A stretch of DNA of 64,000 nt, taken from the NCBI RefSeq assembly GCF_030814115.1, contig NZ_JAUSUP010000005.1, forward strand, positions 62,001-126,000, given 5' to 3'. The notes below the pieces were generated by a model that was not told the DNA's origin, made no database searches, and saw nothing but the letters and a program-made list of their open reading frames with translations. This document shows positions 1,287-5,644 of this stretch, piece after piece; position 1 is the first letter of the stretch; every line of letters begins with the position of its first letter. The stretch comes from Alkalibacillus filiformis. GTDB lineage: Bacteria > Bacillota > Bacilli > Bacillales > Alkalibacillaceae. The translations under genes were made by a program, and so were the position numbers.

Positions 1287-3053
1287 ATGTTTCAAGTATT
1301 TAACAAAAGCCTAAATGATTTTAGAAAAACTTATCCTAAACATATAACGTTCGCTTTAATATACATGGTTTTAACGAGTGTTTTGTTTATGCCAATCATT
1401 TCTGTTATTTTCAATAGAATTTTAATGTTGATCGGTGCGCCAACAGCCATTAATCATGATGTATACAGTATAGCATTAAGTTATTCTGGGGCTATTGCTT
1501 TAACTGTCGTTGGACTAATGGTTTTCGCATTAATATTTATAGAGTTTGGCGTTTTTATTGTTCTAGCACAACAACAGTTTTTTAACCAGTCGATTACTTT
1601 AGCTAACGCATTTTTAACAGCTGTATCTAAAACGCCTAAGTTGATCAGTGTTAGTATTTTGCCTTTAATTATGGTGCTGTTTTTACTTGTGCCGTTTGTG
1701 GAGACGCCGATCGACCGGGTCGTTTATGACTTGAATATGGATATATTGTATTCAGGGCACTTAGCGTTGTCTAATCTTTACATTGCTATTTACTTTGGAC
1801 TATTACTCTTAGTTCTTTACATTATTCTAAGATGGATTTTTGCTATTCACTATATCGTGATTGAAGGTTTAAATGTAAGAAAAGCAATCAAACAAAGTAT
1901 GCGTTTAACAAAACGAAATAAAAAGTCTGTGTTAGTTAATATAATTGCGATTAACTTGTTGATTTTCGCATTAAGTACACTGTTAATTTACCTTATTTCA
2001 TTAATTCCGTCCGGCATGATTGGTACGGTTATTGGAGATTTAATCGAACATTATTTAGTGACAATCTCAACCGTTATTGCTGCGCTATCCACTTTAGTGT
2101 TAGTGCCGATTAATATGATTATTTTAACGAATTTGTTTTACCAATTTAAACAGGATTATGACGAAGTGGAAGATGAGTTAAAAGTAGTTAAAAGTAAAAA
2201 GCTTGCCAAGACAGAACGTAAAGCGTTTAAGTTTTTTAAAAGTAAACGTTATTTAGTCGTACTGTTGTTAGTTGTTTACGTTACAGGGGTTTTTGCTTAT
2301 AACCAAACCGTGAGTGGGAATTTAGTTTACTTAGATTGGAGTGTAGAGGTTGCATCGCATCGTGGCGATTCAGTCAATGCACCAGAAAACTCGATGAGTG
2401 GTGTCCAGTCAGCAATTGAGAAGGGGATTAATGTCATTGAGATTGATATACAATTAACAGAAGATGGTGTGGCTGTGTTGCACCATGATATGAGCTTAAT
2501 GCGGATGGCAGGTGAGCCAGAGCGAATAAGTGAATTAACGTATGATGAATTGTCTGAGCTTGAGATTGGGTCGTCATTTTCTGAAGAGTTTTCTGGTGAA
2601 CCGATCCCCAAACTAGAAGATGTGATTGAAGTGGCTCAAGAAGCGGGTGTTCGACTTTTATTAGATTTGAAACCAGATGATAATGAATCAGAGTTGGCTG
2701 AGGAAATTGTTCGTTTAATTGAAGAATATGAAGCGGAAAATGACTTTTACGTAATGGCGTTTAATAACCAAGTGTTAAGAGAAATTCGTGCCTTGAATGA
2801 AGATGTTTATATTGGGCAAATTCTCTTTACCGCTGTTGGAGATCTATCTCGTTTAGATGTGGACTTTTATACTGTACACCAAACAATGTTATCAGAAAGT
2901 TTAGTTGAAGAAGCTCGTCAAGACGGGCGAGGGGTATGGGTATGGTCAACGAACATCGACAGGACAGCAAACCAAATATTACAGTATGATGTTGATGGAA
3001 TTATTACGAAAACACCAGATGTCGTGTTAAGAATGTTTGAACTTAGAGAGTAG
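1287..3053 (+). CDS. Membrane-anchored glycerophosphodiester phosphodiesterase
   Basis: Hydrolyses glycerophosphodiesters to an alcohol and glycerol-3-phosphate. The start chosen is ATG 1287, with TGGAGG just upstream; a longer GTG start at 1275 lies inside that ribosome site. Residues 1 to about 345 form a multi-helix membrane domain of the glycerophosphoryl diester phosphodiesterase membrane type. The catalytic domain follows, with HRGDSVNAPENS near residue 358, EIDIQLTEDG, the second histidine in LHHD near 400, and LLLDLKPD. All expected GDPD motifs are present. It stands alone between the trp leader promoter and a terminator, so a role in lipid or teichoic acid turnover at the membrane is inferred. 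Confidence 0.9.
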   Translation: MFQVFNKSLNDFRKTYPKHITFALIYMVLTSVLFMPIISVIFNRILMLIGAPTAINHDVYSIALSYSGAIALTVVGLMVFALIFIEFGVFIVLAQQQFFNQSITLANAFLTAVSKTPKLISVSILPLIMVLFLLVPFVETPIDRVVYDLNMDILYSGHLALSNLYIAIYFGLLLLVLYIILRWIFAIHYIVIEGLNVRKAIKQSMRLTKRNKKSVLVNIIAINLLIFALSTLLIYLISLIPSGMIGTVIGDLIEHYLVTISTVIAALSTLVLVPINMIILTNLFYQFKQDYDEVEDELKVVKSKKLAKTERKAFKFFKSKRYLVVLLLVVYVTGVFAYNQTVSGNLVYLDWSVEVASHRGDSVNAPENSMSGVQSAIEKGINVIEIDIQLTEDGVAVLHHDMSLMRMAGEPERISELTYDELSELEIGSSFSEEFSGEPIPKLEDVIEVAQEAGVRLLLDLKPDDNESELAEEIVRLIEEYEAENDFYVMAFNNQVLREIRALNEDVYIGQILFTAVGDLSRLDVDFYTVHQTMLSESLVEEARQDGRGVWVWSTNIDRTANQILQYDVDGIITKTPDVVLRMFELRE

Positions 3054-3054
3054 A

Positions 3055-3084
3055 AAGGGGTTGGATTACCAGCCTCTTTTTTTT
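3055..3084 (+). terminator. Rho-independent terminator after the phosphodiesterase gene
   Basis: GGGGTTGG pairs with CCAGCCTC around a 4-nt loop and is followed by eight T. Confidence 0.7.
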
Positions 3085-3086
3085 GC

Positions 3087-3142
3087 TTTACAAAAGGACA
3101 GTTAAGCGTTATTATAGGTATAAATCGTAACCGTTACGATTT
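3087..3142 (+). promoter_or_regulatory. Promoter with a Zur (zinc uptake regulator) box
   Basis: TTTACA (3087-3092), a 17-nt spacer and TATTAT (3110-3115) form the promoter. A perfect palindrome, AAATCGTAAC and GTTACGATTT around one C, lies at 3122-3142 over the expected transcription start. It resembles the Bacillus Zur box (TCGTAAT-N-ATTACGA core, 12 of 14 core bases). Repression in zinc-replete cells is inferred. Confidence 0.85.
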
Positions 3143-3159
3143 GAAAGAGGGGTGGGATT

Positions 3160-4308
3160 TTGTACAAGTGGATCATAATTGGAGGGGGAGTTCAAGGTTG
3201 TACTATTGCAACTCACCTAATTAGACAAAAGAAAGTAGATGCAAATCAATTACTGATTATTGATTCATACGAAAAGCCCATGCATCGATGGCAAGAACTA
3301 ACTTCAAAAATTGGTATGCCTTTTTTACGGTCGCCTTCAGTCCATCAAATTGATACAAATCCCTTCAGCTTACAGCATTATGCTAAGAAGTATAATGATA
3401 AAAGTTTTTTTGGTAAATATAAAAGGCCCGCACTAGAATTATTTAACCAACATTCTCAATATGTGTTGAATTCTTGTTCTATACTAGATTGTTGGCATAG
3501 AGGAAACGTTTGTGACGTTAAAAAAGAAGGTTCAAGTTGGTGTGTAAAAACTAATAATGGAGAGGTATTTAAGTCTACCAATTTAGTTATTGCAGTTGGC
3601 TCAACCCATGATTTACATATTCCTGACTGGGCTAAAGGGTTTGAAAATGTTCATCATGTTTTTAGCTCAAGTGTTACTAATTTTAGTGAATTAAGTTCAC
3701 CAGTCGTTGTTGTGGGTGGTGGGATTAGTGCAGCACATTCAGTAATTAAGCTTGCCAACCTATTTCCAGGCAAGGTCACACTTCTTAAACGGAAGCCTTT
3801 TAAGATTCACTTGTTTGATAGTGATCCCGGTTGGCTTGGACCTAAATACCTGAATAGTTTTAATAAAGAAAAAGAGTTAACAAAGCGGAGAGAAATTATT
3901 ACTAACGCGAGGCACAAAGGGTCGATCCCACGAGATTTATATTTCACACTTTTATCATTGGAAAGAAAAGGGCAAATATCTATAGTGACTGATCAAGTTA
4001 AAAGCCTAAGTTGTAAAGATGATCAAAAGGTAAACTTATTATTAGAAAGTAATCCAACGGTGGAAGCATCCTCAGTATTGCTTGCAACTGGTTTCAAACA
4101 AGGACTCCCTAATCAAAGTTGGCTATCTCGATTAATTATTGAAGAAAATTTACCTTGTGCTCAATGTGGATTTCCAATTACTAACCAATTGGAATGGTGT
4201 TCACATTTATATGTTGCAGGCTCATTAGCTGAACTGGAAGTTGGGCCTATTGCTAAAAATATAGCTGGGGCACGAAAGGCTGCTAAACTCATTACGCAAT
4301 CGAAATAA
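3160..4308 (+). CDS. FAD/NAD(P)-binding oxidoreductase under Zur control
   Basis: A 382-residue flavoprotein-like enzyme of unknown substrate. It starts at TTG 3160 behind GAGGGGTGGG. The N-terminus has the FAD dinucleotide-binding motif IIIGGGVQG; a second Rossmann site, VVVGGGISAAHS, near residue 185 fits NAD(P)H; and LLATGF near residue 310 is the family's C-terminal signature. This layout resembles N-hydroxylating monooxygenases and flavin reductases. A CxxC (PCAQC) near residue 335 could bind metal. It is 19 nt upstream of a COG0523 GTPase and shares its Zur-boxed promoter, so a role in zinc starvation is inferred, for example a metallophore step or redox handling of zinc sites. No metallophore synthase is nearby. 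Confidence 0.7.
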   Translation: MYKWIIIGGGVQGCTIATHLIRQKKVDANQLLIIDSYEKPMHRWQELTSKIGMPFLRSPSVHQIDTNPFSLQHYAKKYNDKSFFGKYKRPALELFNQHSQYVLNSCSILDCWHRGNVCDVKKEGSSWCVKTNNGEVFKSTNLVIAVGSTHDLHIPDWAKGFENVHHVFSSSVTNFSELSSPVVVVGGGISAAHSVIKLANLFPGKVTLLKRKPFKIHLFDSDPGWLGPKYLNSFNKEKELTKRREIITNARHKGSIPRDLYFTLLSLERKGQISIVTDQVKSLSCKDDQKVNLLLESNPTVEASSVLLATGFKQGLPNQSWLSRLIIEENLPCAQCGFPITNQLEWCSHLYVAGSLAELEVGPIAKNIAGARKAAKLITQSK

Positions 4309-4327
4309 ATAAAGAAGGATGATTACG

Positions 4328-5506
4328 ATGAATAAACTAATTCCTGTTACTGTGCTAAGTGGTTATTTAGGTTCTGGTAAAACCACATTGTTGAATCGAA
4401 TATTAAAAAACACGGAAAATCTAAAGGTTGCAGTTATTGTTAATGACATGAGTGAAATAAACATTGATGCAAACCTTATTAAGAATGGACCTTATTCAGA
4501 AACGGAAGAGAAATTAGTAGAGCTTCAAAATGGTTGTATTTGTTGTACATTACGTGAAGATTTAATGATTGAAGTTGAGAAAATTGCTAAAAAAGGTGAT
4601 ATTGACTATATTGTGATTGAATCATCGGGAATTTCAGAACCAATACCTGTGGCGCAAACTTTCACATACGTTGATGAAGAACTGTCGGTTAACTTAATGA
4701 ATTATTGCCGTTTAGATACTATGGTAACTGTAGTGGATGGTAATAGATTTTGGGAAGATTTCGCATCAGGTGAATCCCTTTTAGCACGTCAAGAGGCTGT
4801 TTCAGAAGATGATACGAGAGAAGTGGTCGATTTATTAATAGACCAAGTGGAGTTTGCAGATGTACTAATACTCAATAAGACTGATCTGTTAGAAGACATT
4901 GATGTTGAAGAATTGAAACGAGTACTCATGAAGTTAAATCCTGAAGCTAAAATATTAACAACATCTTTTGCAGAGGTTGAACTGAAAGAGGTATTGAATA
5001 CGTATTCTTTTGACTTTGAAAAGGCCAGTCAAGGAGCTGGCTGGATTAAAGAGCTGAATGAAGAACATGTTCCCGAGACTGAAGAATATGGCATTTCTTC
5101 TTTTGTTTATAAAAGTAAAAGGCCTTTTCATCCTAAACGATTTATGGACTTCTTGGAAAATTGGCCACAAGATGTGATTAGAGCAAAAGGTTTCTTTTGG
5201 TTATCTTCTCGAAACGATGTTGCCGGTTTATTATCACAGGCGGGCACCTCCCTTATGATTGAATCAGCAGGTGAATGGGTTGCTTCATATTCTGAGGAAG
5301 AGCAAAAAGTCATTCTTGAAGAAGAACCAGAAATAAGAGAAAAATGGGATGAACAGCATGGTGATCGGGTGACAGAACTTGTTCTAATAGGTTTAGAAAT
5401 GGATGAAGCTATGATTAGGAAGATGCTGGATCAAACATTATTAACTGATGACGAAATGCAAGAGAATTGGAGCATGTTTGAAGATCCATTACCAGAGTAT
5501 GTGTAA
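4328..5506 (+). CDS. COG0523 (CobW-type) GTP-dependent zinc chaperone, ZagA/YciC-like
   Basis: A G3E-family GTPase thought to deliver zinc to client enzymes in zinc-poor cells. ATG 4328 is chosen because AAAGAAGGA ends 8 nt before it; the ATG at 4319 overlaps that site. Motifs in order: Walker A SGYLGSGKTTLLN, the metal-binding NGCICCTLREDL (CxCC), ESSGISEP (Walker B/switch), and NKTDLL for guanine recognition. The C-terminal CobW_C domain follows, including an acidic EEEQKVILEEEPE stretch. The 392-residue length fits Bacillus YciC/ZagA. Co-transcription from the Zur-boxed promoter supports zinc rather than cobalamin or nitrile hydratase metallation. Confidence 0.88.
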   Translation: MNKLIPVTVLSGYLGSGKTTLLNRILKNTENLKVAVIVNDMSEINIDANLIKNGPYSETEEKLVELQNGCICCTLREDLMIEVEKIAKKGDIDYIVIESSGISEPIPVAQTFTYVDEELSVNLMNYCRLDTMVTVVDGNRFWEDFASGESLLARQEAVSEDDTREVVDLLIDQVEFADVLILNKTDLLEDIDVEELKRVLMKLNPEAKILTTSFAEVELKEVLNTYSFDFEKASQGAGWIKELNEEHVPETEEYGISSFVYKSKRPFHPKRFMDFLENWPQDVIRAKGFFWLSSRNDVAGLLSQAGTSLMIESAGEWVASYSEEEQKVILEEEPEIREKWDEQHGDRVTELVLIGLEMDEAMIRKMLDQTLLTDDEMQENWSMFEDPLPEYV

Positions 5507-5604: not shown

Positions 5605-5644
5605 AAAACCCGGACGATTTAAATTGAATAATCGTTCGGGTTTT
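5605..5644. terminator. Bidirectional terminator between convergent genes
   Basis: AAAACCCGGACGATT pairs with AATCGTTCGGGTTTT (one mismatch) around a 10-nt loop; A-tract on the left, T-tract on the right. It serves the zinc operon (plus) and the ECF operon (minus). The rest of the 5507-5675 gap holds nothing recognised. Confidence 0.8.

What the first reader, a model, noticed from the sequence alone, without database searches (positions are those of the whole stretch)
3087..5506. Zur-boxed operon pairing an unknown FAD oxidoreductase with a COG0523 zinc chaperone
A perfect 21-bp Zur-type palindrome lies over the start of a promoter that serves a flavin/NAD(P)-binding enzyme and a ZagA-like GTPase 19 nt downstream. 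COG0523 genes under Zur are known; a flavoenzyme as their first partner is not something I recognise. It may prepare a zinc-binding metabolite, or reduce cysteine ligands so that zinc can be loaded.
Basis: partly seen in the sequence, partly recalled or inferred. Interest (0 to 1): 0.55.

Follow-up and report, generated by a model that had tools for sequence, protein, structure and literature searches.

The report
Zinc-famine operon with unexplained flavin enzyme
A two-gene operon under a zinc-starvation switch pairs a zinc-delivery protein with a flavin enzyme whose relatives sit among zinc-starvation genes in bacteria and salt-loving archaea, yet whose chemistry is unknown.

Summary
A perfect 10-1-10 Zur palindrome (3122-3142) follows a TTTACA-N17-TATTAT promoter-like pair, then a 382-aa FAD/NAD(P) protein, then, 19 nt on, a ZagA/ZigA-like COG0523 GTPase. 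It is the only zero-mismatch Zur box in the 2.7-Mb genome. The pair is conserved: COG0523 lies within 3 kb in 59 of 80 named loci.

The surprise is the flavoenzyme. It is a Zur target in its own right. Of 398 Bacilli genomes sampled evenly, 66 carry it; of 64 loci examined, 57 have a Zur box (2 or fewer mismatches) just upstream, against 0 of 64 in each of three controls. Of the 53 with no COG0523 within 3 kb, 50 have the box. Relatives lie among zinc-starvation genes in the cyanobacterial and haloarchaeal plasmids viewed. The Synechococcus 7002 relative is, in print, derepressed without Zur and by TPEN.

The fold is that of N-hydroxylating monooxygenases (Z 32.6 to SsDesB, 361 of 382 residues), but signature residues of that family are replaced. 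No cysteine is conserved across all lineages, though one is kept in Bacilli. I favour a small-molecule flavin monooxygenase of the zinc-sparing response, co-regulated with the chaperone rather than its obligate partner. The substrate is unknown.

The parts
3087..3115 (+). promoter-like pair TTTACA - 17 nt - TATTAT
   Evidence: consensus scan, 10 of 12; not proof of function
3122..3142 (.). Zur box, perfect 10-1-10 palindrome over the expected transcription start
   Evidence: boxes lie at a similar place before the gene in relatives
3160..4308 (+). FAD/NAD(P)-binding flavoenzyme, 382 aa, N-hydroxylating-monooxygenase fold, function unknown
4328..5506 (+). COG0523 GTPase, ZagA/ZigA type, 392 aa, GCICC metal motif
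   Evidence: ZigA model NF038288 534 bits, cut-off 600
5607..5644 (+). probable terminator: AACCCGGACGATT ... AATCGTTCGGGTT followed by T
   Evidence: read by eye; not reported by the scan, whose loop limit is 8

Best explanation
This is a zinc-famine operon. Zinc-loaded Zur sits on the box at the transcription start and blocks it; when zinc runs short both genes are made. The COG0523 GTPase allocates scarce zinc. The flavoenzyme is a Zur-regulon member in its own right: an FAD- and NAD(P)H-binding protein with the two-dinucleotide fold of N-hydroxylating (class B) monooxygenases but a re-made pocket. It most likely oxidises a small metabolite, so that a zinc-requiring step is bypassed or zinc need is reduced, in parallel with the other zinc-sparing genes it travels with. 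Shown here: box, operon layout, conservation of box and neighbours, predicted fold. Shown by others for one relative (Synechococcus 7002): derepression without Zur and induction by a zinc chelator. Inferred: FAD/NAD(P)H use, oxygenase chemistry, zinc-sparing role. Unknown: substrate.
For: Box and operon. The own genome has a Fur-family regulator in a znuA gene cluster with two tandem 1-mismatch boxes. Class-wide: 66 of 398 Bacilli genomes have the flavoenzyme; Zur box with 2 or fewer mismatches in 57 of 64 loci examined, controls 0 of 64 each. Named loci: 55 of 80 with 2 or fewer mismatches, 65 of 80 with 3 or fewer; COG0523 (over 150 bits) directly downstream in 37 of 80 and within 3 kb in 59 of 80. 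65 of 80 loci hold another zinc-starvation-type gene (S14, L31, FolE2, ZnuA, YcgR, YcgQ or the 123-aa family), 76 of 80 if COG0523 is counted. The three cyanobacterial stretches viewed hold hemB, two of them folE, one znuABC and COG0523. The five haloarchaeal ones viewed hold COG0523 or GTP-binding genes with an S14 paralog or a metal ABC importer. Synechococcus 7002 G0132 is derepressed in the zur mutant and sharply induced by TPEN (PMC4628125, passages). Fold: the 25 best rows are all N-hydroxylases, Z 27.8-32.6. Arg57 is invariant in 27 of 27, 82 of 82 and 64 of 64 proteins.
Against: No substrate, product or phenotype is known. A shared fold shows no function. Signature N-hydroxylase residues are replaced, so oxygenase chemistry may be lost and a reductase is possible. 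Bdr (YpdA) follows at Z 27.2 over 302-303 residues, within 1 of the lowest N-hydroxylase row. Cys336 is kept throughout Bacilli (82 of 82 in A2; 52 of 64 class loci, 10 of the rest gaps), and all 66 carriers in the Bacilli sample also have BshC, against 333 of 398 overall; both would suit thiol chemistry, though lineage confounds the second. Among the 80 named loci only 10 of the 21 without COG0523 within 3 kb have a box with 2 or fewer mismatches. The gene is patchy: 2 of 6 genomes of its own genus.
Confidence: 0.47

Rival explanations
1. Zinc-ligand maker: the flavoenzyme hydroxylates an amine or imidazole to give a small zinc-binding compound (metallophore or intracellular shuttle), which a Nik/Opp-type importer or the COG0523 protein then handles.
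For: N-hydroxylase fold; Opp-type importer genes share the locus in some of the 80 named loci, some with Zur boxes before them, and nik-type genes lie in two of five haloarchaeal stretches viewed.
Against: No synthetase-like gene is among the recurrent neighbour clusters printed (30 largest); in the S. aureus record the gene stands beside a Na+/H+ antiporter operon; the residues that mark N-hydroxylases are replaced.
Confidence: 0.2
2. Thiol or disulfide reductase that keeps cysteine zinc ligands (or bacillithiol) reduced so that zinc can be loaded.
For: Bdr (YpdA) is structurally near (Z 27.2); Cys336 is kept in 18 of 18 Bacilli rows of A4 and 82 of 82 of A2; BshC is present in 66 of 66 carriers against 333 of 398 overall; the S. 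aureus gene thought to be the relative responds to sulfide (PMC5480029, passages).
Against: No cysteine conserved in all 27 members; Cys336 absent from 9 of 9 cyanobacterial and haloarchaeal rows and the full CxxC from 17 of 27; NCBIfam YpdA model 23.1 bits against a cut-off of 339.9; BshC did not ring in the control genomes Haloferax volcanii and Synechococcus elongatus.
Confidence: 0.14
3. Physical partner or client: the flavoenzyme binds the COG0523 GTPase, either receiving zinc from it or handing it reducing power.
For: Adjacent, same strand, gap under 200 nt in 37 of 80 named loci; divergent neighbours in two of five haloarchaeal stretches viewed.
Against: 53 of 64 class-wide copies have no COG0523 within 3 kb; in 2 of 6 tested genomes of genus g73 that carry the flavoenzyme no relative of the window's COG0523 protein was found at E 1e-30, and in the other 4 it lies elsewhere under its own box.
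Confidence: 0.12
4. Passenger: the box and pairing are chance or local hitch-hiking.
For: Patchy presence, 2 of 6 genomes of the genus.
Against: Box conserved in 57 of 64 loci against 0 of 64 in each of three controls.
Confidence: 0.02

Closest known systems
B. subtilis Zur regulon, yciC/zagA (COG0523) with folE2
   Same: Same Zur box and same type of GTPase. In B. inaquosorum (L115) the order is folE2 - Zur box - flavoenzyme - COG0523 (folE2 named from its sequence by eye).
   Different: The B. subtilis Zur entry seen here (table passage of PMC6103462) names no flavoenzyme.
Synechococcus sp. PCC 7002 Zur cluster on pAQ7 (SYNPCC7002_G0132)
   Same: Relative of this flavoenzyme (L172), experimentally Zur-controlled and TPEN-induced (PMC4628125, passages). 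That L172 is G0132 is my matching by gene order.
   Different: 28% identical; its divergent neighbour is a 165-aa P-loop protein without a Pfam match rather than a full COG0523; no function given there.
S. aureus NWMN_0815 / SA0806
   Same: The S. aureus relative (35.7%, L171) has a 1-mismatch Zur box 20 nt upstream. NWMN_0815 is marked 'Yes (229)' for the calprotectin response in the table of PMC5480029, as I read it (passages).
   Different: That L171 is SA0806 rests on recalled gene order beside the Na+/H+ antiporter operon. Stands without COG0523 nearby.
N-hydroxylating monooxygenases (SsDesB, DfoA, putrescine N-hydroxylase 7us3, PvdA, KtzI, SidA)
   Same: Whole-length fold, Z 29.3-32.6, 360-365 residues; hhalign probability 99.1 over 380 columns.
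   Different: 14-18% identity; GxGPFNL, LQVPF, GSGQSAAE and ATGY correspond to GGGxQG, LRSPxVH, GGGISAAH and ATGF/H/S or others.
C. glutamicum cg0794/cg0795
   Same: COG0523 gene and a putative oxidoreductase under shared Zur control (PMC2823685, passages).
   Different: Divergent genes; the family of cg0795 could not be tested here.

Membership tests
Zur regulon of Bacillota | Box AAATCGTAATnATTACGATTT at the promoter | tested here: met
   0 mismatches outside the 3-base centre, over the expected start; consensus letters recalled
Zur regulon of Bacillota | A Zur-type regulator in the genome | tested here: met
   Fur-family gene (PF01475) in a cluster with znuA (PF01297) and transporter-like genes; zinc selectivity not tested
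Zur regulon of Bacillota | Zinc-dependent transcription in this strain | not testable with these tools
   needs RNA; in print for the Synechococcus relative
COG0523 zinc GTPase, ZagA/ZigA subgroup | cobW + CobW_C domains and CxCC metal motif | tested here: met
   GCICC
COG0523 zinc GTPase, ZagA/ZigA subgroup | NCBIfam ZigA equivalog cut-off (600 bits) | tested here: not met
   534 bits over nearly the full length; so ZigA-like, not filed as ZigA
N-hydroxylating monooxygenase (NMO) | NMO fold with FAD and NADPH domains | tested here: met
   predicted model, Z 32.6, 361 residues
N-hydroxylating monooxygenase (NMO) | Gln of LQVPF, invariant in 14 NMOs taken from relatives' genomes | tested here: not met
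   aligned to Arg57, invariant in 27 of 27 and 82 of 82 members
N-hydroxylating monooxygenase (NMO) | GxGPxNL and ATGY motifs | tested here: not met
   GGGxQG/HG or similar, and ATG followed by F, H, S and others
N-hydroxylating monooxygenase (NMO) | NADPH-dependent N-hydroxylation | not testable with these tools
   needs purified enzyme
Bacillithiol disulfide reductase Bdr (YpdA) | TIGR04018 cut-off | tested here: not met
   23.1 bits against 339.9
Bacillithiol disulfide reductase Bdr (YpdA) | Conserved active cysteine across the family | tested here: inconclusive
   none in all 27 members, but Cys336 is kept in 18 of 18 Bacilli rows; whether it could serve is unknown

The most novel reading that the evidence does not exclude
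A cross-domain zinc-famine enzyme family, overlooked because its members carry generic names. The N-hydroxylase fold has been re-tooled (Arg57, VHH, a [DE][AS]DxxW loop in most) to make or convert one common metabolite that lowers the cell's zinc need or carries zinc to the COG0523 chaperone. It would be a further arm of the zinc-sparing response in Bacilli, cyanobacteria and haloarchaea.
Probability: 0.2. Interest if true: 0.82.

Novelty: new variant of a known kind. Interest (0 to 1): 0.56.

Why it matters
Zur regulons are well studied, yet a widespread member has no known function; the S. aureus gene thought to be its relative is listed with the value 229 for the calprotectin response. Linking the Bacilli, cyanobacterial and haloarchaeal genes into one family turns scattered transcript lists into one testable enzyme question: which reaction do cells switch on when zinc runs out? 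The answer would show either a new zinc-free bypass or a new zinc-binding metabolite.

Tried and rejected
Redox-active CxxC as the heart of the mechanism: C333 and C336 are invariant in the first 12 relatives. In A2 C333 is kept in 80 of 82 and C336 in 82 of 82; in A4 C333 in 10 of 27 and C336 in 18 of 27, the 18 being all the Bacilli rows; in 64 class loci C333 in 18 and C336 in 52, 10 of the others being gaps. So the pair is not family-wide, while one cysteine is a Bacilli trait. On this recount I raised the thiol rival from 0.10 to 0.14 and lowered the best explanation from 0.50 to 0.47.

Bacillithiol-specific reductase: BshC is in 25 of 25 tested carriers and in 333 of 398 Bacilli. All 66 carriers appear in the list (checked by eye), so 66 of 66 against 267 of 332 non-carriers. 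Lineage explains much of this; I call it inconclusive within Bacilli and unfavourable across domains.

Metallophore cluster: no synthetase-like gene among the 30 largest neighbour clusters. Siderophore genes lie in the same plasmid stretch in Synechococcus sp. NIES-970, and a siderophore receptor gene in that of Picosynechococcus 7002.

Sequence-profile search of the PDB gave only partial, weak hits; the fold search was decisive.

Prior art: a statement of this flavoenzyme family's pairing with COG0523 was not found in searches of the open-access library; subscription papers are not held, so this is weak. Papers seen only as passages: PMC5480029, PMC2823685, PMC6103462, PMC2770081, PMC8000910, PMC6336718, PMC4628125, PMC8637627, PMC10533825, PMC12288471; all others only as listings. 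PMC10533825 reports an E. faecalis 'pyridine nucleotide-disulphide oxidoreductase' detected only under gliotoxin together with zinc-starvation-type proteins; its family was not tested.

Dropped or partial rows: of the 66 carriers, two with broken copies (G092, G410) were left out. L080, L099 and L119 (broken or mis-called frames) were left out of alignment A2 but kept in the box count. The N-hydroxylase alignment A3 uses 14 of 27 loci tried; for 13 the script called no start in the expected place. The 27 members of A4 were picked by hand for spread. The 80 named loci are the best 80 of 282 relatives. I viewed 10 of the 19 plasmid records (5 of 10 haloarchaeal, 3 of 6 cyanobacterial). Several class loci are short or cut by contig ends. 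The class sample is dominated by families f53 and f59, the sets share some genomes, and the shuffle control is a single shuffle per locus, so counts are not independent. Most neighbour clusters (S14, L31, FolE2, ZnuA, LuxS, carbonic anhydrase) were named from sequence by eye; Pfam was run on the permease, DUF1980, DCD, substrate-binding and 123-aa representatives.
Full report
What is there. The window lies in a 2.7-Mb genome whose nearest named relative by this gene is Alkalibacillus haloalkaliphilus (86% identical). After a gene with a glycerophosphodiesterase domain and a terminator-like hairpin (3052-3081) comes a promoter-like pair at 3087-3115. A perfect Zur palindrome follows at 3122-3142, then a flavoenzyme gene at 3160-4308 and a COG0523 GTPase gene at 4328-5506. 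A hairpin with a T tail at about 5607-5644 probably ends the operon (read by eye). The box is the only zero-mismatch site in the genome. The next best are two tandem 1-mismatch boxes upstream of a znuA gene (L033), whose cluster includes a Fur-family regulator, presumably Zur.

Is it more than chance? Yes. In this window 0.15 matches with up to 3 mismatches are expected. Among 60 genomes searched as relatives, the own one included, 12 carry the flavoenzyme. Of the 11 others, 10 have a box with up to 3 mismatches within about 310 nt upstream and 8 have COG0523 in the stretch taken. The 80 best named relatives bear the names of more than 25 Bacilli genera. Of these, 55 have a box with 2 or fewer mismatches between -250 and +30 of the gene start and 65 have one with 3 or fewer. 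The controls (reversed pattern, shuffled upstream, inside the gene) gave 0, 0 and 0 at 2 or fewer, and 0, 2 and 0 at 3 or fewer. In an even sample of 398 Bacilli genomes, 66 carry the gene (18 of 146 genera). I examined 64 of these 66: 57 have a box with 2 or fewer mismatches, 61 with 3 or fewer, and 0 of 64 in every control. The median distance from box to start is 23 nt.

The pair and the flavoenzyme apart. COG0523 (over 150 bits) lies directly downstream on the same strand in 37 of 80 named loci and within 3 kb in 59 of 80. In the class-wide sample only 11 of 64 have it within 3 kb. Of the 53 without it, 50 have their own box; in the 80 named loci the figure is lower, 10 of the 21 without COG0523 within 3 kb. 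In six genomes of the large genus g73 that carry the flavoenzyme, a relative of the window's COG0523 protein was found in 4, elsewhere and under its own box. So the flavoenzyme is a regulon member in its own right, and the operon of the window is one arrangement.

Company it keeps. Within the 80 named loci, 32 have an S14 paralog, 29 an ArsP_1-type permease (YcgR) and 28 its DUF1980 partner (YcgQ), 20 ZnuA, 12 L31 and 5 FolE2 (the permease and DUF1980 by Pfam, the rest named by eye). 65 of 80 have at least one of these or the 123-aa family, 76 of 80 if COG0523 is counted. Beyond Bacilli, tblastn of plasmid records found 19 records, 3 of them Bacilli; I viewed ten stretches. Picosynechococcus 7002 and Synechococcus sp. 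NIES-970 have hemB and folE; Leptolyngbya has a zinc ABC transporter, hemB and two COG0523 genes. Natrialba and Halovenus have a COG0523 gene divergent from the flavoenzyme and an S14 paralog. Haloferax has COG0523 and S14 nearby. Halorubrum has a metal ABC importer directly upstream and a COG0523 gene 2.6 kb downstream. Haloarcula has the importer and, 5.7 kb upstream and beyond, GTP-binding genes. The Bacillus-type box is not expected in cyanobacteria or haloarchaea and was not found there. Only plasmid records were open to this search, so the spread beyond Bacilli is under-sampled.

Experimental support from others. [quoted passage not shown] The record L172 shows the same order, so I take G0132 as the relative found here. 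In S. aureus the relative lies between a Na+/H+ antiporter operon and a thioesterase gene and has a 1-mismatch box 20 nt upstream. I recall this place as SA0806. PMC5480029 lists SA0806 = NWMN_0815 with 17.5 and 8.4 in its two induction columns, sulfide and HNO in that order by my reading, and 'Yes (229)' in the column that I read as the calprotectin response (passages).

What the protein is. An AlphaFold model from 82 sequences has mean pLDDT 93.9. The 25 best structural matches are all N-hydroxylating monooxygenases (many rows are one protein, SidA), led by SsDesB with Z 32.6, rmsd 3.1, 361 residues; Bdr (YpdA) follows at Z 27.2, 302-303 residues. Profile comparison with 14 N-hydroxylases from related genomes gives probability 99.1 over 380 columns. 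But the Gln that is invariant in those 14 falls on Arg57, which is invariant in 27 of 27, 82 of 82 and 64 of 64 members. GxGPFNL becomes GGGxQG or similar, and ATGY becomes ATGF, H, S or others. The family's own marks are LRSxxVHH (56-63; the window protein has HQ at 62-63), [DE][AS]DxxW in most (220-225), H166 and R251. No NCBIfam model reaches its cut-off for the window protein. A Pfam hit to Lys_Orn_oxgnase passes its cut-off, but its best stretch covers residues 117-313 only. So it is built on the N-hydroxylase chassis but is not filed as an N-hydroxylase.

Mechanism. I commit to an NAD(P)H- and FAD-dependent oxidation of a small metabolite that spares zinc, either by bypassing a zinc enzyme or by lowering demand. 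The company of genes known as zinc-free replacements (S14, L31, FolE2, HemB paralogs, a dCTP deaminase paralog; roles recalled) supports this by association only. A zinc-ligand maker is the bolder rival. A thiol or disulfide reductase is less likely, because no cysteine is conserved across lineages; but Cys336 is kept throughout Bacilli and must be tested. The GTPase very probably does what ZagA-type proteins do; it is ZigA-like but below the NCBIfam cut-off.

Novelty. The Zur box and the GTPase are ordinary. The flavoenzyme's membership in zinc regulons is partly in print under generic names. What appears new, within the searches listed, is that these are one family with a distinct pocket, spread over Bacilli, cyanobacteria and haloarchaea and lying among zinc-starvation genes in each.

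Noticed in passing
L173:11282-12433 (+), L116:1155-2276 (+), L110:867-1982 (+): A second flavoprotein family (E 1.4e-67 for L173 and 1.7e-72 for L116 to the S. aureus structure 3d1c, called a putative monooxygenase) has Zur boxes just upstream in L116 and L110 and lies beside COG0523 in Haloferax. It may be the S. aureus NWMN_2483 type (recalled, not tested).
   Followed up: partly
L056:5501-5872 and one or more genes in 29 other loci of L041-L120: A 123-aa protein family, whose representative has no Pfam match, recurs in 30 of 80 loci, often next to the S14 paralog and Zur boxes.
   Followed up: no
L054:5184-5723, also L060, L104, L107, L116: A dCTP deaminase paralog sits in Zur islands; it could be a zinc-free bypass of zinc-dependent dCMP deaminase (recalled role).
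   Followed up: no
L033:4846-5259 (own genome, contig 14): A DUF302 protein is divergent from znuA across two tandem Zur boxes.
   Followed up: no
L035:5800-7792 (own genome, contig 1): A permease and a DUF1980-like gene (YcgR/YcgQ type, by likeness to the pair) lie downstream of a 3-mismatch Zur box, as in many relatives of this locus.
   Followed up: partly
L206:5911-6108, L210:6212-6373, L173:12436-12621: Haloarchaeal S14 paralogs beside the flavoenzyme hold only two cysteines, which would fit a zinc-free version; the chromosomal S14 was not compared.
   Followed up: partly
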